Source of the DNA: Dinoroseobacter shibae DFL 12 = DSM 16493
GTDB lineage: Bacteria; Pseudomonadota; Alphaproteobacteria; Rhodobacterales; Rhodobacteraceae
Length of the DNA: 64,000 bases
Direction: 5' to 3'
Assembly (NCBI RefSeq): GCF_000018145.1
Contig: NC_009952.1
Location: 3,348,001-3,412,000 of the forward strand
A model generated the notes under the pieces. That model worked only from the letters and a program-made list of their open reading frames with translations. It searched no databases and was not told where the DNA came from. A program made the position numbers and the translations under genes. Positions 31,656 through 48,990 of this stretch are shown piece after piece. Each line of letters starts with the position of its first letter. Within the stretch, counting starts at the first letter, position 1.

Positions 31656-31708
31656 AAACAGTGGTGAGCCGTGCAGGATTCGAACCTGCGACCCGCTGAT
31701 TAAGAGTC
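31656..31708 (-). repeat. attL: displaced 3' fragment of a tRNA-Lys gene
   Basis: Matches the 3' half of the intact tRNA-Lys at 48915-48990, including the CCA end (TGG at 31662-31664) and the T-arm. The first 39 bp (31656-31694) are identical to 48909-48947; two mismatches follow at 31695 and 31704. The second mismatch changes the anticodon from TTT to CTT. Downstream sequence does not continue as a tRNA, so this is a remnant, not a functional gene. Confidence 0.93.
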
Positions 31709-31836: not shown

Positions 31837-31874
31837 CGCTTACCCAGTGCTTACCCAAGAGAAGCATTTACCCA
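31837..31874 (+). promoter_or_regulatory. Candidate arm-type integrase-binding repeats, left end
   Basis: Three closely spaced copies of a short direct repeat: CGCTTACCCA at 31837-31846, TGCTTACCCA at 31848-31857 and CATTTACCCA at 31865-31874. They lie between attL and the integrase start, the usual place for arm-type sites. Related copies occur at the right end (48849-48867). The role is inferred. Confidence 0.5.
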
Positions 31875-33040
31875 TGCCCAAAGTAAAACTGAGCAAGAAA
31901 CTCGTCGAGAGTGCAGCCGCGGGTGACGGCGACGAGGTGTTCTGGGACACCGCTCTGCCCGGCTTTGGTTTGCGCGTCAAAAGCAGCGGGTCGAAAAGTT
32001 ACGTGGTCCAGTATCGCAACCGTCAGACCGGGCGCTCACGGCGCAAGACGATCGGCCAGCACGGTCCGCTGATGACCCTGTACCAGGCGCGCGAGATCGC
32101 GCGTGGATATCTTGCGGACGCGCTGCGCGGCGGCGACCCCGTCATGGAGGCGCAGGCGCGGCGGAAGGCGAAGTCGATGCGAGACCTCGCGGATGACTAC
32201 ATGACCAACCATGCGCTCCCCAAGAAGCGGCCCCGCAGTGCGGCCATGGATCGATCTTTGCTGGATCGCGTGGTCCTTCCCGCATTCGGTCGACAATCGG
32301 TGGATGAGGTGAGCCACAAGGACATTCAGCGGCTCCACAACAGCCTCCGTGACACGCCCTACCAGGCCAATCGCGTCCTCGCGTTACTGTCCAAGATGTT
32401 CGAACTGGCGATCCGGTGGGGTCTGCGCGGCGACAACCCGGTGAAGGGCGTCCCGCGGTTCGCGGAGGAGAAGCGGTATCGATGGCTGTCCGATAATGAA
32501 CTGGACCGCCTGCGTGAAGCCTTGGATGCGCACCCAAATCAGCGCGCCGCGAATGCCATACGTCTTCAATTGCTGACCGGCGCCCGTACCGGCGAGGTTC
32601 TCACATCACAGTGGTCAGACTTCGATCTTGACCGCGGTGTCTGGGTGAAGCCCTCTCATCACACGAAACAGAAGCGCACGGAGCACCTGCCATTGTCGGC
32701 AGCGACCGTGGCGCTCCTGCGATCCATTGCGCATGGACGGACCGACGACAGCCCTTTCGTTTTCCCGGGCCGGAAGCCCGGTCATCCCATCAAGGACCTG
32801 AAGCGCTTCTGGACATCGGTCACCAGCACTGCCGGGCTCAAAGACTATCGCCTCCACGACAACCGGCACACCCACGCGTCCCATTTGGTCTCTAGTGGGC
32901 ATAGCTTGCCCATTGTTGGGCGCCTTCTTGGCCACACCAACCCTATGACGACACAGCGCTATGCGCATCTGGCAGATGATCCTTTGCGGCAGGCGGCCGA
33001 AGTGATGGGTCAGAAGCTGACGAACACGGAAAAAAAATGA
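31874..33040 (+). CDS. int: Tyrosine site-specific integrase of the island
   Basis: A 388-aa P4/CP4-57-type tyrosine recombinase that inserts and excises the island at tRNA-Lys. The N-terminal DUF4102-like arm-binding domain (PGFGLRVKSSGSKSYVVQYRNR) is followed by a core-binding domain and the catalytic domain. Catalytic residues seen are Arg in TGARTGEVL, HxxR in HDNRHTHAS, His in LLGHTNP and the nucleophile Tyr in TTQRYAHL. I start at the ATG at 31874; a GTG at 31847 is in frame but overlaps the candidate arm sites. It lies next to attL and reads into the island. Confidence 0.94.
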   Translation: MPKVKLSKKLVESAAAGDGDEVFWDTALPGFGLRVKSSGSKSYVVQYRNRQTGRSRRKTIGQHGPLMTLYQAREIARGYLADALRGGDPVMEAQARRKAKSMRDLADDYMTNHALPKKRPRSAAMDRSLLDRVVLPAFGRQSVDEVSHKDIQRLHNSLRDTPYQANRVLALLSKMFELAIRWGLRGDNPVKGVPRFAEEKRYRWLSDNELDRLREALDAHPNQRAANAIRLQLLTGARTGEVLTSQWSDFDLDRGVWVKPSHHTKQKRTEHLPLSAATVALLRSIAHGRTDDSPFVFPGRKPGHPIKDLKRFWTSVTSTAGLKDYRLHDNRHTHASHLVSSGHSLPIVGRLLGHTNPMTTQRYAHLADDPLRQAAEVMGQKLTNTEKK

Positions 33041-36084: not shown

Positions 36085-36276
36085 GTTGTACTTGACCCTT
36101 CGCAAATAGCTGGCATCATCTTGCTACGTTTCGCGTGCAAGTTGAAGGTTCCTTGGTATGGCCTGTTCTCCCCATCGCGGCACGCCTGTTCCCAAGAATG
36201 GATCATCGCTCGCGCACAGCGCGCCAGGTCGCGGTCTTCGGGCTCGGCCCTCGGGGCTATCGCGGTGCAGGAAAGC
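36085..36276. promoter_or_regulatory. Divergent promoter region cas3 / casABCDE-cas12
   Basis: About 190 bp separating the two divergent cas transcripts. It must hold both promoters; no regulator site is recognised. A ribosome site (CAGGAA) precedes casA. Confidence 0.5.
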
Positions 36277-37797
36277 ATGCCGGTGAACCTTCTTTCCGAT
36301 CCGATCTTTTCCGCCGAAGGGGGCAGGCGTCTTAACCTACCCGGCCTCTTCGCGGCGCTCGCCTGTGATGAGGTCCGCGGTTTCCCCCGCCTGCGCGCCC
36401 ATCAGCGCGCCGCCTGGCACATGTTCCGCGTTCAGCTTGCCGCTCTGGCCCTAGACAAGGCCGGGCGCGCGGAGCCCCCTCAGGATGAGGCCGACTGGCA
36501 CGCCCTGTTGGTCGCGCTGACAGAAGGTGTCGCTGGGCCATGGGATCTGACCGGGCCTGATCGCACCAAGCCGGCCTTTCTCCAGCCACCGGATCCGGGT
36601 GGGCTGAAATGGGAGCCGGTTGCGACGCCGGACGCGCTGGACCTGCTGATCACATCGCGGAACCACGACCTGAAATCGGAGATTGCGGCGCAGGCGGCGC
36701 CAGAGGACTGGGTGTACGCGTTGATCTCCCTCCAGACCTCCGAGGGCTATGGAGGGCGCGGCAACTTTGGGATTGCGCGGATGAATGGCGGCTCATCCAG
36801 CCGTGCGATGTTGGGTCTTGCTCCGGCCGGTCCGGACGGACGGCCGGACCCGGCATCCTGGTGGCGGCGCGACCTGGCGCTGGTGTTGCGCAATCGCAAT
36901 GCGCCAACCCTGCTGACCCGCGGCGGCAAAGCCCTGCTCTGGACGCTGCCCTGGCCTGAGGGGCGTCAGATCCCAGCGCTCGAGATGGACCCACTCGCCA
37001 TCGAGGTCTGCCGCCGCATCCGGCTGGTTGCGCGGGACGGCACCGTCGTCGCCGAACGCGCGGCATCAAAAGCGGCACGGGTGGAGGCGAAAGCCTTCAA
37101 CGGGGTGCTCGACGATCCCTGGGCGCCGGTGAATGTCAAGGACGCGACCCCGAAAACCCTGACGCTTGGTGAGGGGGGGCGGTTTCACTACCGACGCATG
37201 GTCGATCTGCTGACCGGAGGCTACTGGCAACTGCCGCTGGCGGCCCGCCTCGATGAAGGGGAGGTCGCCGGGAACATGGTGCTGGTCGCCGAGGCACTAG
37301 CGCGGGGTAACTCCAAGACGGACGGCTTGCAGTCGCGGAATGTGCCGATGCCGAAACGGGTGCGTGGTCTTGCGGACATACGCAACCGAATCGCGCGGGC
37401 CGCGCAGGAGCAGATGGCCGAAATCGCCGCGGCCGATGCAGCTCTGCGCGAAGCGGTTGCGCTTTATGCGGCCCGCGGCGATTTCGAGACTGTGGGGAAA
37501 CCGCAGCGTCAGCGGGCGGCGGCGGCCCGCGAGCGCCTGGATGCCACCGCTGACCGGATTTTCTTCGACCATCTCTGGGCGCGTATCGCCGGGATGGATG
37601 AGGGCGATGATGCACTGGCCGAAGCCCGGGCCAACTTCCGTGCCGTACTAGTGACGACCGCCCGCGACGAGCTAACCCGGGCCTTCGACGCGATCCCCTG
37701 CGCGCGCATCCACGCCCCCCGCGCCCGCATCCGCGCCCGGGGCCGACTGGAGGGCGCGCTGCGCAAAGCCAACCTGTTGGAGGTCACCCATGCCTGA
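36277..37797 (+). CDS. casA: CasA/Cse1, Cascade large subunit (Cas8e)
   Basis: A 506-aa large subunit of type I-E Cascade, which recognises the PAM and recruits Cas3. It begins with the family sequence MPVNLLSDPIFSAEGGRRLNLPGLFAALACDEV and contains HQRAAWHMFRVQLAALAL and the zinc-free SGGLKWEP-like region (DPGGLKWEPV). The ATG at 36277 has CAGGAAAG upstream; the open frame extends to 35962 in the divergent cas3 gene as shadow. The stop overlaps casB by 8 bp. Confidence 0.95.
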   Translation: MPVNLLSDPIFSAEGGRRLNLPGLFAALACDEVRGFPRLRAHQRAAWHMFRVQLAALALDKAGRAEPPQDEADWHALLVALTEGVAGPWDLTGPDRTKPAFLQPPDPGGLKWEPVATPDALDLLITSRNHDLKSEIAAQAAPEDWVYALISLQTSEGYGGRGNFGIARMNGGSSSRAMLGLAPAGPDGRPDPASWWRRDLALVLRNRNAPTLLTRGGKALLWTLPWPEGRQIPALEMDPLAIEVCRRIRLVARDGTVVAERAASKAARVEAKAFNGVLDDPWAPVNVKDATPKTLTLGEGGRFHYRRMVDLLTGGYWQLPLAARLDEGEVAGNMVLVAEALARGNSKTDGLQSRNVPMPKRVRGLADIRNRIARAAQEQMAEIAAADAALREAVALYAARGDFETVGKPQRQRAAAARERLDATADRIFFDHLWARIAGMDEGDDALAEARANFRAVLVTTARDELTRAFDAIPCARIHAPRARIRARGRLEGALRKANLLEVTHA

Positions 37798-38365
37798 CGA
37801 CCGCGACCACGGCGCGACGGCCCTGTCCATCGCCGCCGCCCTTCGCCCTCTCGACCCAGGGGCCCTGGCCGCCCTGCGCCGGATGACCGGGGACGGATCG
37901 GTGCCCGCCTATTGGCGTCTCGCCGCGTCGCGCCCGATGCTGTCGGACGCGCCGGAGAAATGGGTGCCCATCGTCCGCGCGATTGGCATCCTGACACCAA
38001 AGGGCGCCCCCGAGGATCGCAGCGACCTGCATGACGCAGCGCGGCCCCTCGGCAAGGTGCTCTGTGACGGGGGCGATCCCGATTGGCCGGGCAAGCTCGG
38101 ACCGGGGCAGAAACCGAAGCCAAAGCTGAGCGAACGCCGTCTGGCGCAGCTTCTGGCCGCACGCGGAGCACAAAGAACCATCCTGCTGACCCGCGCGATC
38201 CGTGCGCTTGCCGCCTCGCGCTCCGGGAAAATGGGGGTGCACGTGCCCGACATTGCCTGGGCTTTCCTGCGCGCCGATCCGTCGGACATGCTTGCCCGCC
38301 CATACTACCAATGCCTCGACCGCGCCGAACGCGCCGCCCACACGGAGACCCGAGCTGATGCCTGA
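37790..38365 (+). CDS. casB: CasB/Cse2, Cascade small subunit (Cas11e)
   Basis: A 191-aa alpha-helical small subunit that lines the Cascade belly and stabilises the R-loop. Family features include DPGALAALRRM, SERRLAQLLAARG and the C-terminal WAFLRADPSD. It overlaps casA and casC by 8 bp each, indicating translational coupling. Position between casA and casC supports the call. Confidence 0.93.
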   Translation: MPDDRDHGATALSIAAALRPLDPGALAALRRMTGDGSVPAYWRLAASRPMLSDAPEKWVPIVRAIGILTPKGAPEDRSDLHDAARPLGKVLCDGGDPDWPGKLGPGQKPKPKLSERRLAQLLAARGAQRTILLTRAIRALAASRSGKMGVHVPDIAWAFLRADPSDMLARPYYQCLDRAERAAHTETRADA

Positions 38366-39479
38366 GCCCCGCTTTCTGCAGATCCACACGCTGACCTCAT
38401 ACACGGCGGCCCTGCTCAACCGCGACGACAGCGGGCTGGCCAAGCGGCTGACCTATGGCGGCGCGCCGCGCACCCGGATCTCGTCCCAATGCCTCAAGCG
38501 GCATTGGCGGATCGCCGAGGATCCCCATGCTCTGCACGCAATCGACGGCGCCGACGCGGCCTCTCGGTCGCGCGAGCTGGTGACGCGCAAGGTGCTCGGC
38601 GGCCTCGGCCCCGAACCGGTGGTGGCCGCGATCGAGCCGGTGTTCCAAAAGGCCGTCTACGGGGACAAGGGCACCAGCAAAACCGCGCGACAGACGCTCC
38701 TGTTCGGGGACCGGGAAATCGCCTGGCTGCGCGGCGAGGCCGAGCGCCTGGTCGCCGAAGCGGGCGGCGATGCCGGGGCGGCGGCCAAGACCGCTGAAGC
38801 CTGGGCCAAGGACTTCAAGAAGAACATCGCCGCGATGCGCGACGCGGTCGCCTTGCCCGGCGGTCTGACGGCCGCGCTCTTCGGGCGGATGGTGACCTCG
38901 GACACCTCGGCCAACATCACCGCGCCGGTCCATGTGGCCCATGCCTTTACCGTTCATGGCGAGGAAAGTGAGTCAGACTATTTCACGGCTGTGGATGACC
39001 TCTCGGAGGACGAGCCAGGCGCAGACACGATCCAGGAAACCGAGCTGACCTGCGGTCTCTACTACGGCTACGTGGTCGTCGACCTGCCCGGGCTTGCGAA
39101 AAACCTCGGTCCTGCCGCGGCCGATCTGTCGGGGCCGATCCTGCACAACCTCGTCCACTTGGTCGCCGAGGTCTCCCCGGGGGCCAAGCTGGGCTCGACC
39201 GCGCCCTATGGTCGAGCGGGTCTGATGCTGCTGGAGGCCGGCGATCGCCAGCCCCGCTCCCTCGCCGAAGCGTTCCGTGATCCAGTTCCGGCCGCGGCAG
39301 GCATGGCAGGGGCGACCGACGCACTCACGGAGCATCTGGCGGAGATGGATGCCGCCTACTCGACGGGCGAAGATCGGCGCTTCCTGTCGCTGCGGAATAC
39401 CGATCTGCCCGGTGCGGCGCGCGGAACGCTCAAGGAGTTGGCCGATTGGGCCGCCGCCCTGCCCGCCCAACTGTCATGA
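38358..39479 (+). CDS. casC: CasC/Cse4, Cascade backbone subunit (Cas7e)
   Basis: A 373-aa Cas7-family RNA-binding protein that forms the six-subunit Cascade backbone. It begins with the family motif FLQIHTLTSYTAALLNRDDSGLAKRLTYGGAPRTRISSQCLKRHWR (seen at 38370-38507) and has the thumb and palm segments NITAPVHVAHAFTVHGEESESDYFTAVDDL. The ATG at 38358 overlaps the casB end; the frame extends into casB as shadow. The stop overlaps the casD start by 4 bp. Confidence 0.96.
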   Translation: MPEPRFLQIHTLTSYTAALLNRDDSGLAKRLTYGGAPRTRISSQCLKRHWRIAEDPHALHAIDGADAASRSRELVTRKVLGGLGPEPVVAAIEPVFQKAVYGDKGTSKTARQTLLFGDREIAWLRGEAERLVAEAGGDAGAAAKTAEAWAKDFKKNIAAMRDAVALPGGLTAALFGRMVTSDTSANITAPVHVAHAFTVHGEESESDYFTAVDDLSEDEPGADTIQETELTCGLYYGYVVVDLPGLAKNLGPAAADLSGPILHNLVHLVAEVSPGAKLGSTAPYGRAGLMLLEAGDRQPRSLAEAFRDPVPAAAGMAGATDALTEHLAEMDAAYSTGEDRRFLSLRNTDLPGAARGTLKELADWAAALPAQLS

Positions 39480-40162
39480 GCGGGACCGACACACGCTGGC
39501 TCGTTTTACGCTTGAGCGCGCCGATGTTGTCCTTCGGGAGGGTCTCTATCGACCAGGTCGGCCCCACCGCGCGCTGGCCTGGGTCGTCAATGCTGACAGG
39601 GCTTCTCGCCAATGCGCTCGGCTGGGACTGGGACGACAGAGCTCGACTCCAGGCGCTGCAGGACCGGCTGCGCTTTGGCGCGCTGATCCTGCGCGAGGGC
39701 GACACCCTGACCGACAGCCAGAACGCTCAGCTCGCCAAGGCCGATCGGGGCTGGACAACGCGCGGCGCGCCGGAGGGCCGGGCCGGGGCAAGCTACGACG
39801 CGCCTCACAGGCGGCGGCGCGATTTCCTCATGGATGCGGAGTATAGGGTCGTCCTGACGCTTGCCCTCGCCGAAGCCGAGCCGACCCTCGACCGTATCGG
39901 CGCCGCGCTGGACCGACCCGCGCGGCCGCTCTTTCTTGGGCGCAAGCCATGCCTGCCGACACGACCCCTGCGCGCGGGCGAGGTCCGGGGCGCAACCGTA
40001 TATGCGGCGCTCGCCGAACTGAACTGCGCAACGCCCTGCCCAGCTGCCTGGCCCAAGGACGACGGCCCGGACGGGCACCGCGTGCACGACGTGGCCGACA
40101 CACGGGTCTGGTCCAGCGGGCTGCATGGCGGCACTCGCGCCTTGGTGGAGGGGACACTGTGA
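39476..40162 (+). CDS. casD: CasD, Cascade subunit Cas5e
   Basis: A 228-aa Cas5-family RAMP protein that caps the 5' handle of the crRNA. Family blocks are LVLRLSAPMLSFGRVSIDQVGPTARWPGSSMLTGLLANALGW, RDFLMDAEYRVVL and RPLFLGRKPCLPTRPL. It starts 4 bp inside casC (ATG at 39476) and ends 4 bp inside casE. Confidence 0.95.
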   Translation: MSGTDTRWLVLRLSAPMLSFGRVSIDQVGPTARWPGSSMLTGLLANALGWDWDDRARLQALQDRLRFGALILREGDTLTDSQNAQLAKADRGWTTRGAPEGRAGASYDAPHRRRRDFLMDAEYRVVLTLALAEAEPTLDRIGAALDRPARPLFLGRKPCLPTRPLRAGEVRGATVYAALAELNCATPCPAAWPKDDGPDGHRVHDVADTRVWSSGLHGGTRALVEGTL

Positions 40163-40950
40163 CGCTCTATCTCGCGCGTCTGCCGGTCGATCTGCCCGCA
40201 CTTGCGCGGGCTGCGGGAGAGCGCGGCTGGACCCGCGGCCGACGTGCGGCGTTTGATGAGGGCCGGGCGTTGCATCACCTGCTGGCAGAGACCTTCGGCC
40301 CCGGCGCCCTGCAACCGTTCCGACTGGTGGTCGCCCCGCGGGCAAAGTCCGGCACGCTCTGGGCCTACACTGACGTGGATGCGACCGCTCTACGCGAGAT
40401 CGCAGCGCCCGTCCCGCTGTCCGAGGCGATGGTGACCGCACTCTCCCCCGACCGGATCGAGACCAAGCCGATGCCAGAGCTTGCCGTGCCCGGGCGCAGG
40501 CTCGGCTTCGACATCCGTCTTCGCCCGGTCGTGCGCCTCGCCTCCGCCATCCCCGCGCCTGCCGATCGCGCCGCCGGAAGGGATCACGGGTTTAAGGCCG
40601 GCGCCGAAGTCGATGCCTTTCTCGCCGAAGCTCTGCGCCAGCCCGACCGGGAGGCCATGCACACCGCCGAACGCAGCCGCGAGACGGTCTATGCCGCCTG
40701 GCTCGCCGACCGCTTCGGCCCCGCCGCCGAACTGGAGCAAGTCACCCTCGCCGCGTTCCGCCGCAGCTTCGCCGCCCGCAAGGACGGCCGGGGGTGCGAA
40801 GGTCCGGATGCGACCCTGCACGGCACGTTGACGGTAGGCGACGCGAAAGCGTTCGCGGAACGACTGCACCGGGGGGTCGGACGCCACAAAGCCTATGGCT
40901 ACGGCATGTTGCTGATCCGCCCGCCCGGGCGCCCGGTGCCGAAAGGATAG
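40159..40950 (+). CDS. casE: CasE, crRNA endonuclease Cas6e
   Basis: A 263-aa RAMP endoribonuclease that cleaves the repeat hairpin to leave an 8-nt 5' handle. Two ferredoxin-like domains are implied; the conserved glycine-rich loop GVGRHKAYGYGMLLIRP lies near the C-terminus. Active-site histidine candidates include the one in ALHHLLAETFG near residue 40. The GTG at 40159 (VTLYLARLPVD) overlaps casD by 4 bp. Four bases separate the stop from cas1. Confidence 0.94.
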   Translation: MTLYLARLPVDLPALARAAGERGWTRGRRAAFDEGRALHHLLAETFGPGALQPFRLVVAPRAKSGTLWAYTDVDATALREIAAPVPLSEAMVTALSPDRIETKPMPELAVPGRRLGFDIRLRPVVRLASAIPAPADRAAGRDHGFKAGAEVDAFLAEALRQPDREAMHTAERSRETVYAAWLADRFGPAAELEQVTLAAFRRSFAARKDGRGCEGPDATLHGTLTVGDAKAFAERLHRGVGRHKAYGYGMLLIRPPGRPVPKG

Positions 40951-40954
40951 GGCA

Positions 40955-41830
40955 ATGCTCAAGGGGCGGCTCGGTCTCGACAGTGCGAAGGTCCCCCACG
41001 GGGACCGCGCAGGGCTACTCTATCTCGCGCGCGGGGCGCTGACCGCCCGCGATGGCACACTTGCCTTCCAGCGCGGGTCCGCCGAAGGTCCCGACGCCCT
41101 CGCGCAGGGGGACCATGCGATCCCGCTCCAGGGCGTGTCGATGATCCTGCTTGGACCCGGCTCCACCGTCAGCCACGACGCCCTGCGCCTGCTCGCCCAT
41201 GCCCGTACGGCCCTCGCCGCCGTGGGCGAGGACGGCGTGCGCCTCTACACCGCACCGCCACTGATCCCCGACCGCTCCGGCCTCGCCCGGCTTCAGGCCC
41301 GGCTCTGGGCCGATGACGACATGCGTATCATGATCGCGCGGCGCATGTACGCGCTCCGGCTTGGCGAGGTCCTGCCACACCGCACGCTGGATGTCCTGCG
41401 CGGGATCGAAGGCGCCCGGGTCAAGGAAAGCTATAAGATCACCGCAGAGCGCTTCGGCGTGCCCTGGCGCGGCCGGCGCTACGACCGGGCCGACCCGCTA
41501 GCCGCCGACCTGCCCAACCAGGCCCTCAACCACGCCGCCAGCGCCGTCGAGGCCGCTGCGGCCATCGCCGTGAGCGCAACCGCGACCGTGCCACAACTGG
41601 GCTTCATCCACGAGGATCCCGGCCAGTCCTTCGTCCTCGATATCGCCGACCTCTGGCGCGAAACTGTGACACTGCCCTGCGCCTTCCGCGCCGCCAAACG
41701 CGCGGCCGAGCGCCCGGACATGCCCGTCGAGCGTATCGCGCGCCGCCTGACCGGCGAGACGCTGGCGAAGGAGCAGGTCATCCCCGCGATGATCGACCGG
41801 ATCAAGACCCTGATCGAAGAGGGCCCATGA
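40955..41830 (+). CDS. cas1: Cas1e, CRISPR spacer integrase
   Basis: A 291-aa metal-dependent integrase that with Cas2 inserts new spacers at the leader end of the array. Catalytic elements are RGIEGARVKESY (first Glu region), LGFIHEDPGQSFVLDIADLWR (His and acidic residues) and the type I-E C-terminus. The start has AAGGATAGGG upstream. An intact cas1 means the system can probably still acquire spacers. Confidence 0.96.
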   Translation: MLKGRLGLDSAKVPHGDRAGLLYLARGALTARDGTLAFQRGSAEGPDALAQGDHAIPLQGVSMILLGPGSTVSHDALRLLAHARTALAAVGEDGVRLYTAPPLIPDRSGLARLQARLWADDDMRIMIARRMYALRLGEVLPHRTLDVLRGIEGARVKESYKITAERFGVPWRGRRYDRADPLAADLPNQALNHAASAVEAAAAIAVSATATVPQLGFIHEDPGQSFVLDIADLWRETVTLPCAFRAAKRAAERPDMPVERIARRLTGETLAKEQVIPAMIDRIKTLIEEGP

Positions 41831-41861
41831 GCCGCGAGCCACGGCCGGAGACAGCCGCGCC

Positions 41862-42155
41862 ATGCCCATGACGATGGTCGTCACCCGCGATGTCGAGGCC
41901 CGCTACCGTGGATTTCTCACCTCCGTCATGCTTGAGGTCGCACCGGGGGTCTACGTCGCCCCGGATCTGTCCGCGGGCGTGCGGCAACGGGTCTGGGCGG
42001 TCCTGTCGGACTGGTACGAAACCCTGGGCCGCGGTGCGATCGTCATGGTCTGGCGGGACCCGGCCGCCACAGGCAGTCTCGGGATGGAGATGCTGGGCAC
42101 ACCTCCGAAGGAAATCGTGGACGCGGACGGAATTTTGCTCGTAAAACGAAAGTGA
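41862..42155 (+). CDS. cas2: Cas2e, spacer-acquisition structural subunit
   Basis: A 97-aa type I-E Cas2 that bridges two Cas1 dimers during adaptation. It shows the family start MVVTRDVEARYRGFLTSVMLEVAPGVYVAP and AIVMVWRDPAATGSLGMEMLGTPP. Three in-frame ATGs (41862, 41868, 41874) leave the exact start open. It ends 63 bp before the first CRISPR repeat. Confidence 0.95.
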   Translation: MPMTMVVTRDVEARYRGFLTSVMLEVAPGVYVAPDLSAGVRQRVWAVLSDWYETLGRGAIVMVWRDPAATGSLGMEMLGTPPKEIVDADGILLVKRK

Positions 42156-42218
42156 AGCGCGACCCGCTCAACCCGGCCCTTTGACATCGCGAGCAATTTC
42201 AAGGAAATGGCTCCAAGA
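42156..42218 (+). promoter_or_regulatory. CRISPR leader
   Basis: Short 63-bp leader between cas2 and the first repeat. It holds a consensus -35 hexamer TTGACA at 42181-42186 and a weak -10 about 17 bases on, which would start the pre-crRNA just before repeat 1. Being next to cas2 and opposite the degenerate last repeat marks it as the acquisition end. Confidence 0.65.
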
Positions 42219-44259
42219 GGCTCCCCCGCCCCCGCGGGGATAGACCCGGCATCGCCCCGGCGGCCACCGACACCACCAGGGCTCCCCCGCCCCCGCGGGG
42301 ATAGACCCTGGTCGGGCTGGACGTATCTCGCGGAGACGCTGGCTCCCCCGCCCCCGCGGGGATAGACCCTTTCCAGACAACGGGCCTGGCCCTGAATGCC
42401 GGGCTCCCCCGCCCCCGCGGGGATAGACCCGACACCGGGGCGATCCGGTCGCCGGGGTTCATGGCTCCCCCGCCCCCGCGGGGATAGACCCCTGGAGGGA
42501 GCTGTGGTTGGACCTGACCCGCTGGCTCCCCCGCCCCCGCGGGGATAGACCCCTGCTGACGCGCCTGGCCGGGGCGCTGGATGCGGCTCCCCCGCCCCCG
42601 CGGGGATAGACCCGGGAAGGTGCTTGGACTTGCGCCGCCGAGGTTGGCTCCCCCGCCCCCGCGGGGATAGACCCTTGGACAGCACCTCGGGATCGTTGGG
42701 CAGCGTGGCTCCCCCGCCCCCGCGGGGATAGACCCTCTTGGACAGCACGAGGGGGGAGGTGATTCTGGGCTCCCCCGCCCCCGCGGGGATAGACCCCCGT
42801 CCTGGTCCTCGAACACCCCCGCGCCGGGGGCTCCCCCGCCCCCGCGGGGATAGACCCTGTCCTATGCCGTCGAAAAAGCCGCCAAAGCCGGCTCCCCCGC
42901 CCCCGCGGGGATAGACCCACTCACCTATGACGAAGACCGGACGCTCAGCGGGCTCCCCCGCCCCCGCGGGGATAGACCCCCGGAGGGAGCTGTGGTTGGA
43001 CCTGACCCGCTGGCTCCCCCGCCCCCGCGGGGATAGACCCCGACCACACGTCGCGAAGTCAAGATCCCGACCGGCTCCCCCGCCCCCGCGGGGATAGACC
43101 CGAGACTGATAGCGTCGCGGTTGAGACGTTCAAGGCTCCCCCGCCCCCGCGGGGATAGACCCTTGAACCCCTCGGCCCACCCGACGGGCAAGGGGCTCCC
43201 CCGCCCCCGCGGGGATAGACCCCCACCCGAAACCAGCGGCCTGGATGAATTCACGGCTCCCCCGCCCCCGCGGGGATAGACCCGTAGTAAATCATGTTCG
43301 GGCGCAGCTTCATATGGCTCCCCCGCCCCCGCGGGGATAGACCCAGTGGGATCGCTTGATCCGCGACCGTTTCACCGGCTCCCCCGCCCCCGCGGGGATA
43401 GACCCATCCGCATCATCGCCACGGAGTCCGGCGCCGCGGCTCCCCCGCCCCCGCGGGGATAGACCCCGCCGAGCGTTTTGGCGTGACGGTTAGTGATCGG
43501 CTCCCCCGCCCCCGCGGGGATAGACCCTTTGGTGACGACCTATTCTTGAAGATCAACGCGGCTCCCCCGCCCCCGCGGGGATAGACCCGGCGCGCTCCTG
43601 CTGGCTGTGGTGGCGTTCCTGGCTCCCCCGCCCCCGCGGGGATAGACCCGGCGGCAAGGGTGACACTATCGAGGATCTGGTGGCTCCCCCGCCCCCGCGG
43701 GGATAGACCCGCGATTACGAAAAGCACCTGACCTATATCGAGGGCTCCCCCGCCCCCGCGGGGATAGACCCGCAATGGCCGATATGCTCGATCCCCAAAA
43801 GGTGTCTCCCCCGCCCCCGCGGGGATAGACCGTGGAACACGTGCACGTCGATAATCCTGGGCCGGGCTCCCCCGCCCCCGCGGGGATAGACCCAGCGAGG
43901 GCACTGCGACCGCCACCAGCGCCGAGGCTCCCCCGCCCCCGCGGGGATAGACCCTCGGCTCGCGTCGTCAACTGAAACCGCATCACGGCTCCCCCGCCCC
44001 CGCGGGGATAGACCCGTAGCGATTGGGGTGTCGCCTCCTTCGAGGTAGGCTCCCCCGCCCCCGCGGGGATAGACCCTACGACCGCCAGCGGTATATTATT
44101 GGTGTGGAGGCTCCCCCGCCCCCGCGGGGATAGACCCAAGGCCCCGCTCGGGCCGGACTACGTGCGTCAGGCTCCCCCGCCCCCGCGGGGATAGACCCGG
44201 CGCGAGCGCTTCCTGCACATCGCTGGGTGGGGCTCCCCCGCCCCTGTGGGGATAGACCC
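42219..44259 (+). CRISPR. Type I-E CRISPR array, 34 repeats and 33 spacers
   Basis: Repeats of 29 bp start GGCTCCCCCG and end GGGGATAGACCC, every 61 bp. Spacers are 32 bp except spacer 16 (43163-43193, 31 bp). Each repeat can form a 6-bp hairpin (CCCCGC at positions 6-11 with GCGGGG at 16-21) and leaves the 8-nt handle ATAGACCC after Cas6e cleavage, the same form as E. coli type I-E. Variants: repeat 27 (43804) has G2T and C29G; the last repeat (44231) has C15T and C17T. Spacers 5 (42492) and 13 (42980) differ at one base. Transcription is on the plus strand from the cas2 side. Confidence 0.99.
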
Positions 44260-44484
44260 CCGCAGGCTTCGGTCGCGGCTGGATGAAAGTTCAGTGGCAG
44301 GTCACGTGCTTTCCAGGATAGCCACGACTTCAAGCTTTCGCCCTAGATATTTCAGTAGCTTACCACAGAAACCGTCACAACTTTTGCGACTCTGTCCACA
44401 TCTTTCCTCCCCGTAGAAGCACATCTTTTCCTCTAGAAGCGCACCGCATCCTGGCGGTCCGCATTGAGGTGAAGAGGAAAGCAA

Positions 44485-44688
44485 ATGGCAAAGCTCACGC
44501 AGGCGCAACTGGCGGCGCGGTGGTATGTGTCGCCGCGGACACTGGAGCAGTGGCGGTGGTTGGGGAAGGGACCACGGTTTCTCAAGATCGGGGCGCGGGT
44601 ACTCTATGACGAGGCCGAGATCGAGGCCTATGAGGCCGGGCAGGTTTGCCAGAACACCCACGGCCCGCTCGATCCGGGGCGCGGCTGA
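44485..44688 (+). CDS. Small helix-turn-helix protein (AlpA/excisionase-like)
   Basis: A 67-aa DNA-binding protein of the MerR-like/HTH_17 fold: LTQAQLAARWYVSPRTLEQWRWLGKGPRFLKIGARVLYDEAEIEAYEA. Such proteins act as excisionases or regulators in mobile elements. GAGGAAAG precedes the ATG. Its stop overlaps the start of the next HTH gene by 1 bp, so the two and the recombinase downstream form an operon. The specific role is inferred. Confidence 0.8.
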   Translation: MAKLTQAQLAARWYVSPRTLEQWRWLGKGPRFLKIGARVLYDEAEIEAYEAGQVCQNTHGPLDPGRG

Positions 44689-45194
44689 TGGCGAAGCGGT
44701 TCCCCGCCAATCGGATCAAGACCCACCGCATCTACACGGTCTGGGAGGTTTCCGACGCGCTCGGGTGCCACAAGCAGACGGTCGGGCGCTGGATCAGGTC
44801 CGGGGCGCTTGCAGCGGACATGCGCAAGCGTCCTTGGCTCATCGACGGGCGCGATCTGAAGGCGTTTCTGGGCCAACGGGTCGCTCGGCTCCGCTGCAAA
44901 CTGGCGCTGCATCACTGCTACTGCCTTGGCTGCAAGGCACCTCAGGAACCCGACGGCCGGATGGCGGACTACGTCCAGCAGACCACGGAAACCGGGCAGC
45001 TCACAGGGATCTGCCCGGCCTGTGGCGCCCTCATGAACAAGATGGTTAGGCGCGCCGATCTGGAGGCCATCCGGGCCAAACTGGAGGTCACAATCCAACA
45101 GGCCTCGCCAAGATTAGTGTCCCTTGAAGATCCCCGTTCAAATGTCACCTCCACTAGGGAGCGCCGGACCCATGGCAAGACGCAACAGCGATAA
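44688..45194 (+). CDS. Helix-turn-helix protein with a zinc-ribbon-like tail
   Basis: A 168-aa protein starting MAKRFPANRIKTHRIYTVWEVSDALGC. An N-terminal HTH (YTVWEVSDALGCHKQTVGRWIRSGAL) is followed by DGRDLKAFL. A cysteine-rich segment follows with CKLALHHCYCLGCKAP and CPACGALM, likely one zinc ribbon. I do not know a characterised homologue. The frame extends to 44646 inside the previous gene, but the ATG at 44688 overlaps that gene's stop as in a coupled operon. Its 3' end overlaps the recombinase start by 23 bp. Confidence 0.75.
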   Translation: MAKRFPANRIKTHRIYTVWEVSDALGCHKQTVGRWIRSGALAADMRKRPWLIDGRDLKAFLGQRVARLRCKLALHHCYCLGCKAPQEPDGRMADYVQQTTETGQLTGICPACGALMNKMVRRADLEAIRAKLEVTIQQASPRLVSLEDPRSNVTSTRERRTHGKTQQR

Positions 45195-46230
45195 CCAGCG
45201 CATCAAGCGCAAATACCTCGTCTGGCTCAAGGACGCCCGCGGTTTGTCCGAGGCATCGATCGACAAGACAGCGGCCGCGATAACCGGCTACGACGATTGG
45301 CTCGGCGGGAAGGACTTTCGCGCTTTTCACAGCGAACGCGCCCGATCCTTCAAGCGCCATCTCGGCGGTCTCAGGAACGCGCGCACCGGGTCACCGCTGT
45401 CGGCCTCGACGGTGAACAGCATCCTACGGGAACTCAAGGCGTTTTATTATTGGCTTGCCGATCAACCAGGTTACAAATCGCGCATCAGCCGGTCGGATGC
45501 CGATTACTTGAGCCCGGATCGCAAGTCCGATCAGGCGCGCCGCGGGTCGCTCTGGAAGCCGCATCCCTCGCCAGACCAAGCCCGCCACGTCATCACCAAT
45601 ATGGCCGTCGGCTCTATCATCGAGCGCCGAAACCGCGCTTTCCTGGCATTTCTGTTCCTCACCGGCTCCCGCGAGGGGGCGGCCATTTCCGTGCAAGTTC
45701 GCCATGTCGACAAGATCCATCGCTGCGTGCAATTCGACGGGCGCGACGTGTACACCAAGTTCGGCAAATCCTTCACCACGGGCTTCTATCCGATGGGCGC
45801 AGCGCTCGAGAAGATCCTCTTCGGCTGGATCAATGAGCTGAAGCGTGACCATCTCTTTTCCGGTGGCGATCCTCTCTTTCCCAAGACCCGGGTGGGTGTT
45901 GGCCCGGATCGCCGGTTCCAAGCTCTCGGCATTGCGCGAGCCCCTTGGGCCAGTCCGTCAAGCGCTGCGAAGATCTTCAAAAGGGCCTTTGTCGATGCGG
46001 GGCTGCCGCCCTTCTCGCCGCACCGCGTTCGCGACACCATCGCCGAACTGGCGAGTGCGCATTGCCGCACACCGGAGGAGTTCAAGGCATGGTCACAGAA
46101 CATGGGCCACGACGACGTTCTCACCACCTTCCGCTCCTACGGATCGGTCGCACCTGGCCGCCAGATGGAACTGATGACCCGCTTCCGCGAACGCGCGGCT
46201 ATCGACGACGACCTTGACGTGATCGAGTAA
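45172..46230 (+). CDS. Second tyrosine recombinase
   Basis: A 352-aa phage-integrase-family recombinase starting MARRNSDNQRIKRKY. The N-terminal SAM-like domain spans about residues 5-115. Catalytic residues are Arg in TGSREGAAI, Lys in TKFGKSFTT, HxxR in SPHRVRDT, His in MGHDDV and Tyr in TTFRSYG. It differs from the island integrase at 31874 and is co-transcribed with two HTH genes, so this may be the core of a smaller element nested in the island, or an accessory recombinase for the defence cargo next to it. A longer frame to 45124 overlaps the previous gene. Confidence 0.85.
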   Translation: MARRNSDNQRIKRKYLVWLKDARGLSEASIDKTAAAITGYDDWLGGKDFRAFHSERARSFKRHLGGLRNARTGSPLSASTVNSILRELKAFYYWLADQPGYKSRISRSDADYLSPDRKSDQARRGSLWKPHPSPDQARHVITNMAVGSIIERRNRAFLAFLFLTGSREGAAISVQVRHVDKIHRCVQFDGRDVYTKFGKSFTTGFYPMGAALEKILFGWINELKRDHLFSGGDPLFPKTRVGVGPDRRFQALGIARAPWASPSSAAKIFKRAFVDAGLPPFSPHRVRDTIAELASAHCRTPEEFKAWSQNMGHDDVLTTFRSYGSVAPGRQMELMTRFRERAAIDDDLDVIE

Positions 46231-46233
46231 AGC

Positions 46234-48024
46234 CTAGCCTTTGTCCACGCGACGACGGACCGTCACCCGGTCCGGAGCAAGGCGATAGCCCTGCCACGGC
46301 ACGTTCTCGATGATTTCCCTCGTCGCATCCGCGTCCAATCCAGACGACGCGAACTTTTTTTGCAAGGCGTTTCTCGCTCTCAGAACCCGGCGTCGCAGCG
46401 CCTCTTCACTTTCCAGTCCGAGCCGCCTGGCGAGCTCCGGCGCAGAGATACAAGGGTAGTCGAGGGGAGTGAGGCCCTGCCCTGCCCCGGACAACCAGCT
46501 CTCTGCAAGGACAAGGAGCAGGTCTGCATTGGCATCGCGCTGGAACGTGATATGCGGTCCTACTCGTACCCATCGCGCGGCGCCATCGATCTCGACCGCG
46601 ATTGTCTCCGGCTCGGCGCGTCCAGCCGGTGCTGCAGCGACGGCTACGGTCGGCAACAAAACCTGTGTCTGCATCTCACCGTACAGTCGGGGCAGGCTAT
46701 GCGCAGGAAAGCTCCCCGCGGCGCGCTGATCGAGGGCCTTGCGCATGACGCCTGCAACGCTTGACCCGTGGCGCGCCAGAAGGCCGCGGATCATGTCCAG
46801 GGCGGTTTCGGGTGGCTGCTGCACATGCATCACGGCATCGAGCACCGCAGGCAAGGATCTCTCGAGATCCTCCGGCGTCATATACTCGAAGGCCTGGGCA
46901 TTGCGCACATATGACAGCGCAATCTCGCGGTCGCGAACATCAGTTCTGCTGCCTTCGAGACGATCGATGCACTGGGAACACCGGCCGCAATGCGGATGTT
47001 GCCGGGTCTGGTTGTGGACGTCGGCGCAACTGCGCGAAACAGCGATCTGTTCAGCCATGTTCAGGCGCGCGATCGTCTCGACCACCTCTTTCTTCGTCCG
47101 CCAGAAATACGGGTTATCAACGCGCATCGCGCCTTGGAAAACCTGCCCCAGCAGCGCGGTGAACCGGGAGAGCGTCTGTGGGTGCGTCGTCCGTGTGGCC
47201 CTTGTACCAAGGACGTTTCCGACCGGCGGGAGGTTCAGGCTCACCACACCGTTCTCATGAAAGGACACCCGGTTCAGGTCGAAGGCCTCCGCCGTGATCG
47301 CTCCCAAGGCTGCAAACAGGAACGACCGGCTGCGATGCGTGCCTTCCTTCAGTGAGCGCCCCATCATCTGAACCTGCACAGGGACATGCTGGCACGTGTT
47401 GGCGCCGAACGCGTCCGCGAGACTCCTTTGCATGTATCGCTGTACCGGCGCGATCTTTGTCGCGGAGAAATGGCTGACAAGTGCCACCCGTTGGCCATGC
47501 TCGGCGATCTCCTCCACAGCCCCGGAGAGGGAATCGAGACCACCCGAGAACATCAGCACCCGCGTTGCCTGCCAGGAGCTTTCCTTGTCGAACTTGAAGA
47601 AAGGCGATCTCGGCGCCTTTGCGGAGGGCGCTTCGGTGAACGTGAAGGCGAACCGATCTCCGGTCAGGAACATGAGCGTCTCTTCCAGTGCATGCGTGAC
47701 CTCTGGCGCGCTTCAAAACGCCGCGTCGCGCACCAGGACCGTCACCGAGAACCGGCGGTGCCACTTCGCGCCCATGTGCTGATCCGCGGACCCGCCCCGG
47801 CTGACGGCGGCGTCCGCGCCATAAACCAGCGCCGCGATCTCAAGCAGGTCCAGCGCCCGATCGGGCAGATCGGCCACCAGCCGGGCACTGAGCCTACCGA
47901 TGCTGAGCTTCATGGTGACAGGCGCGCCGTCGATCGTCAGGCGCAGCAGATCATCGCCGTCGCGCGCGCTCTCATGGGGCAGGCACACGACCTCATGCAC
48001 CGGCGGCTCAGCGGCGGCGGCCAA
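46234..48024 (-). pseudogene. QatC-like (QueC-family) defence protein interrupted by an in-frame TGA
   Basis: A QueC-type PP-loop enzyme of the kind found as QatC in Qat anti-phage systems. The reading frame runs from 48024 but meets one TGA at 47713-47715 (VRDAAF-stop-SAPEVTHALEETL) and continues in the same frame to 46234; TGG (Trp) is the likely ancestral codon. Downstream are MFSGGLDS (PP-loop), a zinc site (HCGRCSQC) and a C-terminal winged-helix-like segment (NALQKKFASS, NVPWQGYRL). An ATG at 47673 could restart a 479-aa protein with all motifs but lacking about 117 N-terminal residues. The 5' end overlaps qatB by 17 bp; TTG 48024 and GTG 48000 are possible starts. Confidence 0.8.
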
Positions 48025-48778
48025 GCTCTTGTCTCAACTTCTTGAAGGCATAGTCCGTGAACCGGTCGATGGCGGGCTGATCCAGCGCCTGCTTCTGCCA
48101 CACGGTCTTGCCATACCATCCGCCGGCAAACTCCTCGACGATGCGCGACGCCTCGAACGTGTGCCGCGCCAGCGCCTGCTGGAAGGCGACGCGCTGGCTA
48201 TCATCAGCGAAGCGGGCACCCTGGCCTGTATGGTTGGCCAACTCCCGGCTCAGATAATAATCAAGCGACCGCTGGGTCAGACGTGCAAAGAAATCCCGCG
48301 CCAACCCCGCAAAGCGATCACCCGAGGCAAAGCTGCCAAGCGCGGCGCGGATCTCCTGGGGCGTGGGCTCGAAGAGCGTGGGCAACCGGTCGCGCAGTTG
48401 AACCGATAACGACTCCAGAAAGGCGGATTTGGCCAACTCACCAGCATCGGACGACACGCCTGTCTCGAAGGTGTTGCGATCGATCGCTAGCTCCAGCCCT
48501 GCAAGCAGCCCCGTGACGGATCCCGGTGCGGTCTCGCCAACGCCCAGATCAGCCAGCGCCGCCTCGAAGCCAGGCGCGCGCGCCAGAAGCGGCAGGCGCA
48601 CGAGTAAGGATGCAACGAACTGAAACCGGGGGTCTTGGCTGGCCTTCGAGAGGTCGCGCTCGGATGCCTTGGCCGCTGCCTCCGCGACAGCCTCCAGGGG
48701 CGCGTCCGAGCCGATCAGAGAAATGACCTCGCGCCACTTCCTGGACCGCGGCAACGTGCCCAGCCTTATATGGCCCAT
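48008..48778 (-). CDS. QatB-like anti-phage defence protein
   Basis: A 256-aa soluble, mainly helical protein beginning MGHIRLGTLPRSRKWREVISLI, which I recognise as the start of QatB-type proteins. In Qat systems (QatABCD) QatB sits beside the QueC-like QatC, as here (17-bp overlap). QatA (ATPase) and QatD (TatD-like nuclease) are not next to the pair: only 130 bp separate this gene from the island's right end. The C-terminus has WYGKTVWQKQALDQPAIDRFTDYAFKKLRQELGRRR. Frame and start look intact. The molecular role is not known from sequence; assignment rests on N-terminal likeness and synteny. Confidence 0.72.
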   Translation of the reverse strand: MGHIRLGTLPRSRKWREVISLIGSDAPLEAVAEAAAKASERDLSKASQDPRFQFVASLLVRLPLLARAPGFEAALADLGVGETAPGSVTGLLAGLELAIDRNTFETGVSSDAGELAKSAFLESLSVQLRDRLPTLFEPTPQEIRAALGSFASGDRFAGLARDFFARLTQRSLDYYLSRELANHTGQGARFADDSQRVAFQQALARHTFEASRIVEEFAGGWYGKTVWQKQALDQPAIDRFTDYAFKKLRQELGRRR

Positions 48779-48848
48779 GGCATCCTCCCGTTAGGAAAGA
48801 CGCTCGCCGATGCAGCCACCAAAATCAAAGGCCAAAACGACGCACAAA

Positions 48849-48867
48849 GCTTACCTGGCGCTTACCC
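48849..48867 (+). promoter_or_regulatory. Candidate arm-type integrase-binding repeats, right end
   Basis: AGCTTACCTG at 48849-48858 and GCTTACCC at 48860-48867 resemble the three repeats at the left end (31837-31874) and lie just inside the right att repeat, between qatB and tRNA-Lys. A binding role for the island integrase is inferred. Confidence 0.45.
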
Positions 48868-48908
48868 GGCACTAGCACCCAGATCTGCATCTGTACGTAA
48901 GATATTGA

Positions 48909-48961
48909 AAACAGTGGTGAGCCGTGCAGGATTCGAACCTGCGACCCACTGATTAAAAGTC
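48909..48961 (-). repeat. attR within tRNA-Lys(TTT)
   Basis: Right copy of the 53-bp direct repeat. The first 39 bp are identical to 31656-31694; mismatches at 48948 and 48957. It covers the 3' end, T-arm and anticodon arm of the intact tRNA. Confidence 0.92.
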
Positions 48962-48990
48962 AGTTGCTCTACCAACTGAGCTAACGGCCC
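48915..48990 (-). tRNA. tRNA-Lys (anticodon TTT)
   Basis: A 76-nt cloverleaf including encoded CCA. It starts GGGCCGTTAGCTCAG, has anticodon arm CTGACTTTTAATCAG (anticodon TTT) and T-arm GCAGGTTCGAATCCTGC, and ends ACGGCTCACCA. The acceptor stem pairs fully with one G-T wobble. It remains complete because the inserted island supplied an equivalent 3' end. Confidence 0.98.

What the first reader, a model, noticed from the sequence alone, without database searches (positions are those of the whole stretch)
46234..48778. QatB-QatC-like defence pair without QatA/QatD, at the island edge, with a nonsense codon
A QatB-like gene and a QueC-family QatC-like gene overlap by 17 bp, but no ATPase or TatD-like gene is beside them: the island ends 130 bp upstream and a convergent recombinase lies downstream. 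The QatC-like frame has one TGA (47713-47715) where TGG would fit, and stays open in the same frame on both sides. Either the pair is a decaying remnant, or a shorter two-gene relative of Qat with a restart at 47673. The C-terminal winged-helix-like segment is an unusual addition.
Basis: partly seen in the sequence, partly recalled or inferred. Interest (0 to 1): 0.72.

Follow-up and report, generated by a model that had tools for sequence, protein, structure and literature searches.

The report
Broken copy of two-gene Qat defence
The locus is a recently damaged copy of a two-gene relative of the Qat anti-phage system, which occurs intact in other bacteria, carries a DNA-binding-like domain fused to its enzyme, lacks the two usual partner genes and often sits beside a recombinase gene on mobile DNA.

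Summary
In detail: a QatB-like gene overlaps by 17 bp a QatC-like frame interrupted by a TGA, with no QatA or QatD beside it. Two things are true together. (1) This copy is broken: the TGA falls on a Trp that is invariant in 52 of 52 aligned relatives, and a 22-codon gap removes further invariant residues. (2) The two-gene layout is not a remnant: 80 of 80 viral-collection loci had QatB followed by a QatC-like ORF and none had QatA or QatD in the fetched flanks; 23 of 390 genomes of the order carry the QatB. The long QatC forms its own clade with an extra C-terminal domain, in alphaproteobacterial copies a PhoB/OmpR-type winged helix (fold for one, tail pattern for 17 of 17), in a Leptospira plasmid a DpnII/MboI-type nuclease. 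QatB matches solved QatB by fold only. The pair often lies near site-specific recombinases; in the Roseobacter type it sits beside tRNA genes with a tyrosine recombinase and an HTH gene. Here it is one end of a 17.3-kb tRNA-Lys island that also holds type I-E CRISPR-Cas. Anti-phage activity is inferred from published QatBC work, not shown.

The parts
48008..48778 (-). QatB-like gene, 256 aa, N-terminus MGHIRLGTLP; intact
   Evidence: ORF; alignment A1 of 20, which includes it, with M1 G2 H3 L6 P10 invariant; the fold of the Roseovarius homologue matches QatB 9y01_A, Z 12.8
46234..48024 (-). QatC-like frame, 597 codons with stops, broken; close relatives 617 aa
47713..47715 (-). in-frame TGA at a column that is Trp in 52 of 52 aligned relatives
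46959..46960 (-). junction of a 22-codon (66-bp) in-frame gap directly after the CIDR of the zinc motif; removes R356 to Y373 (L008 numbering), both invariant in the 52
46960..47575 (-). QueC-like PP-loop core with SGGLDS, RxRxxxF, ENG, TRTTHP, NPYFWRTK and the zinc cysteines (approximate limits)
   Evidence: fold of the L008 homologue
46240..46600 (-). C-terminal winged-helix domain of PhoB/OmpR type (approximate limits, transferred from L008 residues 497-614)
   Evidence: BaeR Z 9.6, PhoB effector 1gxq Z 9.2, for L008; PF00486 passes its cut-off in the relative L131 but was not hit by L008 itself
45124..46230 (+). tyrosine recombinase, convergent with QatC
   Evidence: PF00589 just under cut-off here (26.1 against 27.1) and over it in L008; orthologue beside the pair in related loci
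44646..45194 (+). HTH_17 protein, overlaps the start of the recombinase frame
48915..48990 (-). tRNA-Lys (TTT), integration site
48909..48960 (.). att repeat at the tRNA end
31656..31707 (.). att repeat at the distal end (52 bp, 96% identical)
48849..48866 (-). GGTAAGC-N4-GGTAAGC, probable integrase arm site
31838..31855 (-). second copy of the arm-site motif, beside the P4-type integrase
31847..33040 (+). P4-type integrase (Arm-DNA-bind_3 + Phage_integrase)
33532..41830 (.). type I-E cas genes (cas3, cas8e, cas11, cas6e, cas1 identified), cargo of the same island
42219..44265 (.). CRISPR array, 29-bp repeats at a 61-bp period

Best explanation
The locus is a recently inactivated copy of a naturally two-gene Qat variant (QatB plus a long QatC). 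SHOWN by computation, on homologues unless said otherwise: QatB and QatC folds; conserved catalytic motifs; no QatA or QatD in the flanks; a separate QatC clade; an added C-terminal domain (winged helix in the Roseobacter type); linkage to recombinases; and, in this copy, a nonsense codon plus a 22-codon gap at invariant sites. INFERRED mechanism of the intact form: QatC uses ATP to modify the exposed N-terminal glycine of QatB (MGH.. after Met removal), as proposed for QatBC of QatABCD and reported for Cap9 in type IV CBASS. The fused winged helix brings the complex to DNA, doing in cis what the DNA-binding NTPase QatA may do in the four-gene system. The modified complex then blocks phage. 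The element that carries the pair spreads by its own integrase into tRNA genes. In this strain the pair is predicted to be inactive.
For: QatC: PADLOC QatC hit in the window; AF2 model of the homologue L008 (pLDDT 86.2) against QatC 9y02_B, Z 33.3, 397 residues over 8-469. QatB: AF2 of the L008 homologue (pLDDT 88.5) against QatB 9y01_A, Z 12.8, 209 of 215 residues; the next entry apart from 9y02_A is unrelated at 5.9. Wing: residues 497-614 against BaeR Z 9.6 and PhoB effector domain Z 9.2; PF00486 over cut-off in L131. Two-gene layout: 80 of 80 viral-collection loci with a QatC-like ORF after QatB, 0 of 80 with QatA or QatD in the fetched flanks; full-length QatA in 1 of 23 carrier genomes, on another contig. 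Clade: 63 long QatC rows against 16 canonical plus 2 others, support 96.2/99. Lesions. Otherwise constrained: 14 of 196 window-specific changes at columns conserved in the other eight QatC used, second highest of the nine (highest L010, 20 of 202). Mobile element: 52-bp att repeats, arm motifs, P4 integrase.
Against: No activity was measured. QatB homology rests on fold, context and the MG...P...W tail; profile comparison gives only 7.5% probability, Foldseek alone found no match, and Z 12.8 for a helical protein is near the level where shared arrangement alone can occur. QatA and QatD are dispensable only for some phages in the published work, so a QatBC-only system may have a narrow range. 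The winged helix could be a regulator of its own operon, not part of the effector. The viral collection favours integrase-bearing contigs, and its loci overlap in part with the genome loci, so those counts are neither unbiased nor independent. Reads were not available, so the TGA could be a sequencing error, though the separate 66-bp gap could not come from the same base call.
Confidence: 0.74

Rival explanations
1. Remnant of a four-gene qatABCD operon that lost qatA and qatD when the island edge was cut.
For: The pair lies at an island edge and one gene is broken.
Against: Relatives with intact pairs show no QatA or QatD in the flanks fetched; the QatC belongs to a separate clade with a 214-332 aa part after residue 380 against 59-82 aa in 16 canonical QatC; the island edge is an att site, and a tRNA ends within 190 bp of qatB in 14 of 17 Roseobacter-type loci.
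Confidence: 0.04
2. A functional shortened QatC made by restart at 47673 (479 aa).
For: An ATG follows the TGA, with a GGAAGAG stretch that ends 6 nt upstream of it; the part downstream shows no excess of changes at conserved columns.
Against: The product lacks the N-terminal extension that is strictly required in P. aeruginosa QatC (PMC13279940) and the 22 residues after the zinc motif, including invariant R356 and Y373. The same Met is an ordinary internal residue in the seven intact close relatives aligned.
Confidence: 0.06
3. The QatBC pair with its winged helix is a regulatory or maintenance module of the mobile element (control of excision, exclusion of similar elements), not mainly an anti-phage system.
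For: Frequent neighbour of recombinases: a recombinase or integrase hit within the locus in 70 of 80 viral-collection loci, a large serine recombinase within 3.5 kb in 7 of 12 carrier genomes of the distant group; tyrosine recombinase in 13 of 14 Roseobacter-type loci with room for it; PhoB-type domain. The cargo beyond the module varies.
Against: The recombinase type differs between lineages (serine, tyrosine, P4 type), as expected of cargo; the conserved motif beside qatB is most likely an integrase arm site, also found where no QatB match was seen, so no QatC-specific operator was found. Published QatBC is anti-phage.
Confidence: 0.15
4. The TGA is a sequencing or assembly error and the gene is functional here.
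For: The frame is open on both sides; no acceleration beyond the range of the intact copies.
Against: A second, independent lesion of 66 bp removes invariant residues; broken copies also occur among relatives (5 of 17 loci including this one).
Confidence: 0.1

Closest known systems
QatB-QatC core of the qatABCD anti-phage system (PDB 9y01/9y02; NF041925, NF041924; PADLOC QatA-D)
   Same: QatC fold over 397 residues (Z 33.3); SGGxDS, RxR, ENG, RTxHP, TK and four zinc cysteines shared by 63 long and 16 canonical QatC rows at 98% or more; QatB fold (Z 12.8) and exposed MG N-terminus; overlapping B-C gene pair.
   Different: No QatA or QatD in the flanks; QatB N-terminus MGH in place of MGTS and no sequence-level match to QatB models; QatC longer by about 130-270 aa with a winged helix or other C-terminal domain; below the NCBIfam cut-off (187.6-223.1 bits against 280 in 6 of 6 scanned; window 200.6).
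Cap9 with CD-NTase in type IV CBASS (PDB 9nto)
   Same: QueC-family ligase paired with a partner that has an N-terminal glycine; Z 14.1 to the QatC core.
   Different: The partner here is a QatB-type helical protein. The Tyr/Asp pair that reads the deazaguanine base in Cap9 is Thr/Thr in QatC (PMC13279940); by motif position the long QatC has T277 (near-invariant) and T279 there, my mapping.
QueC (PF06508), queuosine biosynthesis
   Same: PP-loop core (Z 14.0 to 3bl5).
   Different: N- and C-terminal extensions and a partner gene; the QueC substrate motifs were not checked one by one.
PhoB/OmpR-type DNA-binding domain (PF00486, PDB 1gxq, 4b09)
   Same: Fold of the C-terminal domain of the L008 QatC; PF00486 over cut-off in L131.
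   Different: Fused to a QueC-family enzyme; no receiver domain among the Pfam hits of the proteins scanned.

Membership tests
QatC | QueC-like core with SGGxDS and a four-cysteine zinc site | tested here: met
   Invariant in 52 long QatC and shared with 16 canonical QatC; present in the window. The first two zinc cysteines are 12 residues apart here, against 19 in E. coli QatC (PMC13329287, section 7).
QatC | N- and C-terminal extensions around the core | tested here: met
   Structural alignment over model residues 8-469 of L008.
QatC | NCBIfam NF041925 equivalog cut-off of 280 bits | tested here: not met
   187.6-223.1 bits in 6 of 6 long QatC scanned; 200.6 bits for the window.
QatC | uninterrupted gene in this strain | tested here: not met
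   TGA at 47713-47715 and a 22-codon gap.
QatB | helical QatB fold | tested here: met
   Z 12.8, rmsd 3.8, 209 of 215 residues, next unrelated entry 5.9; tested on the homologue L008, not on the window protein, and near the level of chance resemblance for helical folds. Foldseek alone gave no match at E 0.001 or better.
QatB | sequence similarity to QatB family models | tested here: not met
   No PADLOC or NCBIfam QatB hit among those scanned; hhalign probability 7.5%.
QatB | N-terminal glycine after the initiator Met | tested here: met
   G2 invariant in the 20 sequences of A1, which holds the window, and in the 47 of A5; the motif is MGH, not MGTS.
qatABCD system | qatA (KAP NTPase) in the operon | tested here: not met
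   0 of 80 viral-collection loci within flanks of up to 6 kb; in 23 carrier genomes one full-length match (G206, other contig) and one weak partial match (G256, other contig) (one of PADLOC's two QatA models run).
qatABCD system | qatD (TatD nuclease) in the operon | tested here: not met
   0 of 80 loci; 23 of 23 carrier genomes have a TatD-level match (E 1e-17 to 1e-23) on other contigs or, on the same contig, no nearer than about 25 kb (G175); G206 has in addition a strong match beside its QatA.
qatABCD system | anti-phage activity | not testable with these tools
   No experiment. Published: QatBC alone protects against lambda vir (PMC13279940).
Type IV CBASS (Cap9) | CD-NTase partner gene | not tested
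   No CD-NTase model was run on the neighbourhoods; the partner gene matches QatB by fold.

The most novel reading that the evidence does not exclude
A second, naturally minimal class of Qat immunity exists: an MGH-type QatB and a long QatC whose C-terminal slot takes exchangeable nucleic-acid-acting domains (PhoB-type winged helix, a longer tail of unknown fold, a DpnII/MboI nuclease) in place of separate QatA and QatD. It travels on recombinase-bearing elements and is missed by the QatB models and the QatC cut-off tested here. The slot would be where target recognition or the effector step happens, so it could show what QatBC acts on.
Probability: 0.4. Interest if true: 0.78.

Novelty: new variant of a known kind. 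Interest (0 to 1): 0.6.

Why it matters
A 2026 paper reports that QatB and QatC alone protect against some phages, while the chemistry and the target of the pair remain open (PMC13279940, Results and Discussion read). A clade that has only these two genes, and fuses DNA-binding or nuclease domains to QatC, is natural evidence that the pair is a complete unit. It also gives a direct handle on where it acts. The QatB of this clade was not hit by the PADLOC and NCBIfam models used here, and its QatC falls under the NCBIfam cut-off, so such systems are likely under-counted.

Tried and rejected
Operator for QatC: the conserved GGTAAGC-N4-GGTAAGC between tRNA and qatB looked like a Pho-box-style operator (11-bp period, recalled). 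It was rejected because it also lies at the distal island end beside the P4 integrase and beside tRNAs in G020 and G083, where no QatB match was found.

Relaxed selection upstream of the TGA: pN/pS of codons 1-104 against L008 was 0.51 versus 0.17 for L008-L002, which would fit a restart. Counting changes at columns conserved in all other copies gave 4 of 31 for the window, equal to L010 (4 of 31) and close to L008 (3 of 30). dS is saturated, so the first figure was not trusted.

Phage origin: the 80 viral-collection loci (the best 80 of 113) were not taken as proof of phage carriage. The annotated phage collection gave only 2 Listeria phage records, with a match to the core alone, and most of the loci hold a large serine recombinase (67 of 80).

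Empty site: in genus relatives the tRNA-Lys/dapF side is conserved, but the other flank differs, so no clean empty junction was found.

Foldseek alone missed the QatB fold. The sequence profile of the QatB set found nothing convincing in the PDB. Loci L197, L198, L201, L202, L205 and L206 were first read on the wrong strand; they were re-read and the tree was redone.

Rows left out: alignment A4 (52 QatC) holds 8 of the 12 genome-contig loci and 44 of the 80 viral-collection loci, and A5 (47 QatB) 8 and 39; broken, cut or near-duplicate copies were left out. The tree left out the broken copies and the IS-disrupted Sinorhizobium locus L211. Some of its 63 long rows are identical or nearly so (L071/L124, L073/L135, L075/L165), because viral-collection and genome loci overlap. 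One search used nine copies; L080 and L081 were left out.

Literature: searches for QatC/QatB/QueC, defence islands with QatABCD, QatBC/deazaguanylation, and QatC with prophage listed no title or abstract on a QatBC-only clade or on a QatC with a winged helix. 'Find' gave 0 for 'winged' in PMC13329287 and 0 for 'winged' and 'MGH' in PMC13279940. PMC13329287 reports qatA near only 34% of its QatC cluster, so QatC without QatA is visible in its statistics though not described (section 7 read). Subscription papers and bioRxiv are largely not in that library.
Full report
WHAT IS THERE. A 256-aa gene (48008-48778, -) overlaps by 17 bp a QatC-like frame (46234-48024, -). The frame is open apart from one TGA at 47713-47715. 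PADLOC's QatC model hits both parts (E 1.8e-43 and 7.6e-5), and Pfam's QueC model hits the larger part above its cut-off. The first gene hits no PADLOC or Pfam model at the thresholds used. A tyrosine recombinase (45124-46230, +) ends 3 bp from the QatC stop and is preceded by an HTH_17 gene (44646-45194). A tRNA-Lys lies at 48915-48990 (-).

THE COPY IS BROKEN, TWICE. Close relatives have a 617-aa QatC; the window frame has 597 codons. The TGA falls on a Trp column that is invariant in 52 of 52 aligned QatC (52 chosen rows, 8 of 12 genome-contig and 44 of 80 viral-collection loci) and is shared with 16 canonical QatC. It removes R356 to Y373 (numbering of L008), both invariant in the 52. Intact copies exist. 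Of 17 distinct Roseobacter-type loci, 10 are full length, 5 are broken (this one, L005, L009, L012, L082; L009 and L012 are metagenome assemblies) and 2 are cut by a contig edge. The lesions look recent. At columns conserved in the eight other copies used, the window has 14 changes in 196 for QatC (segments summed; second highest of nine, L010 has 20 in 202) and 5 in 128 for QatB (L010 14, L112 8, L002 5). A restart at 47673 would lose residues 1-117 as well as the 22 residues, so I judge the gene inactive. That is inference, not shown.

THE TWO-GENE FORM IS REAL AND COMMON. A genome-collection scan with the QatB gave 12 loci. A search of 390 genomes of the order gave 23 carriers including this one, from 100% down to about 31% identity; 289 genomes of the class gave 4 including this one. 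A profile scan of the viral collection gave 113 relatives, of which the best 80 were kept. In 80 of 80 a QatC-like ORF follows (3 of them short or cut), and in 0 of 80 is there a match to one reference QatA or QatD within the fetched flanks, which were up to 6 kb and sometimes cut by contig ends. The 80 are redundant: 79 QatB sequences were recovered and form 47 clusters at 90% and 9 at 50% identity, single linkage, and some are the same loci as in the genome set. In 23 carrier genomes, full-length QatA occurs in 1 (G206, on another contig, 2.3 kb from a strong QatD match as in a QatABCD operon; QatB and QatC between them were not checked), plus one weak partial match in G256 (one of PADLOC's two QatA models). 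Other QatD-model matches are at TatD level and no nearer to the pair than about 25 kb. So QatA and QatD do not seem to be supplied in trans.

A SEPARATE CLADE. An unrooted tree of the QatC core (63 long rows, 16 canonical with QatD adjacent, 2 others) separates the long form with support 96.2/99 and the canonical form with 96.8/100. The part after residue 380 is 214-332 aa in the long form and 59-82 aa in the canonical form. Mean core identity is 45% within the long form, 39% within the canonical form and 28% between them (the tree step of that call failed and was rerun). NCBIfam's QatC cut-off (280 bits) is not reached (187.6-223.1 bits in 6 of 6 long QatC; window 200.6), and none of the 3 MGH-type QatB scanned hits a QatB model.

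FOLDS. The model of the Roseovarius QatC (L008; pLDDT 86.2, 52 sequences) matches QatC 9y02_B with Z 33.3 over 397 residues. Its C-terminal residues 497-614 match the DNA-binding domains of BaeR (Z 9.6), PhoB (1gxq, Z 9.2, 92 residues, 2.6 A) and ArlR (Z 8.8). Pfam's Trans_reg_C does not hit L008 but passes its cut-off in the related L131 (33.7 against 26.2 bits). The QatB model (pLDDT 88.5) matches QatB 9y01_A with Z 12.8 over 209 of 215 residues; the next unrelated entry has 5.9. Foldseek alone did not find it, and profile comparison with 10 canonical QatB gives 7.5%. I call it QatB on fold, gene context and the tail M1 G2 H3 L6 P10 (invariant in 47), with W15 near-invariant in the set of 20. 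The sequence link is undetectable.

THE C-TERMINAL SLOT VARIES. In alignment A2 the 17 of 17 alphaproteobacterial long QatC end in the winged-helix pattern. By a simple motif rule, 32 of 80 viral-collection QatC have a winged-helix-like tail, 40 a longer tail of another type, 5 other and 3 are short (the rule misses some, as L131 in 'other' is the Pfam-confirmed winged helix). A Leptospira noguchii plasmid pair has a 621-aa QatC whose tail is PF18742, DpnII-MboI nuclease (E 1.2e-9).

MOBILITY. The window pair is one end of a 17.3-kb island with 52-bp att repeats (31656-31707 and 48909-48960), a P4-type integrase at the far end, type I-E cas genes and a CRISPR array. The motif GGTAAGC-N4-GGTAAGC occurs exactly twice in the window, once at each end. 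It is found in 8 of 149 genomes, 6 of them QatB carriers, and pairs up in one orientation 17, 32 and 27 kb apart in G000, G031 and G077. In G031 and G077 it lies beside a P4 integrase about 65% identical to the window's. It also lies beside tRNA-Arg and tRNA-Pro in G020 and G083, where the QatB search found no match, so it is most likely an integrase arm site. In 14 of 17 Roseobacter-type loci a tRNA (Lys, Arg or Thr) ends within 190 bp of qatB; the exceptions are a contig edge (L006), L009 and L085. The tyrosine recombinase follows in 13 and the HTH gene in 12 of the 14 loci with room for them (L082 lacks both, L010 the HTH). The recombinase family is wider, in 81 of 390 genomes. Of 20 islands fetched around members about 40% identical, 19 have a tRNA in the fetched stretch. 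Their neighbours include type I and IIG restriction-like, Cas9-like and type I-C-like genes (most of these names rest on reading translations, only the IIG enzyme was scanned). Beyond the Roseobacter type the pair often sits by large serine recombinases: 70 of 80 viral-collection loci have a recombinase or integrase hit somewhere in the fetched stretch, 67 of them serine. This collection is biased towards such contigs. Of the 12 distant-group carrier genomes 7 have a serine recombinase within 3.5 kb, while 5 do not: 2 have only a fragment or weak match further off and 3 none in the stretch. Rough arithmetic from the 31 hits listed in about 49 Mb expects about 0.07.

HOW IT LIKELY WORKS. Published work (PMC13279940: abstract, Results and Discussion read) reports that QatB and QatC alone protect against lambda vir, that the SGGxDS residues, two Thr of the active site, the N- and C-terminal extensions of QatC and G2 of QatB are needed, that QatA binds DNA, and that without QatA and QatD protection against some other phages is lost. 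The long QatC keeps these residues (the Thr pair by motif position). I therefore infer ATP-dependent modification of the QatB N-terminus, with the fused winged helix giving DNA contact in cis. Against a pure defence reading stands the recombinase linkage; an island-maintenance role is the main rival. Activity is untested.

VERDICT. New variant of a known kind; the copy in the window is a dead or dying example of it.

Noticed in passing
window 31656-48960: A 17.3-kb tRNA-Lys island that carries type I-E cas genes and a long CRISPR array (61-bp period, 42219-44265) together with the QatBC module; two array units share nearly the same spacer (42463 and 42951).
   Followed up: partly
L088-L107 (recombinase homologues about 40% identical): The HTH plus small tyrosine recombinase pair recurs near tRNA genes (19 of 20 fetched) next to restriction-modification, Cas9-like and type I-C-like cargo, often with a P4-type integrase (by reading translations): a wider family of defence-carrying islands in Rhodobacterales.
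   Followed up: partly
L111:4653-6518: QatC-like protein of a Leptospira noguchii plasmid with a DpnII-MboI nuclease domain as its C-terminal part, next to an MGH-type QatB.
   Followed up: partly
L205, L206 (G813, G850): A third QatC-like lineage (about 465 aa) outside both the long and the canonical clade, without a QatD match in the 1.5-kb flanks; neighbours not identified.
   Followed up: no
L240 (G940:C31:5-8655): A different 8.5-kb insert between a copy of the tRNA-Lys 3' end and the intact tRNA-Lys at the same chromosomal site in a genus relative: the site looks like an integration hotspot.
   Followed up: partly
L086 (G364:C10:1-295): The first 28 codons of a second QatB-like gene beside tRNA-Lys at a contig edge in a genome that has an intact pair elsewhere.
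   Followed up: no
OR848142.1 and OR846725.1 (hits H31-H34): Two unannotated Listeria phage records match the QatC core at 28-29% identity.
   Followed up: no
G206:C27:9672-14621: A carrier of the two-gene form also holds full-length QatA and strong QatD matches 2.3 kb apart on another contig, as in a four-gene Qat operon (QatB and QatC between them not checked): both forms may coexist.
   Followed up: partly
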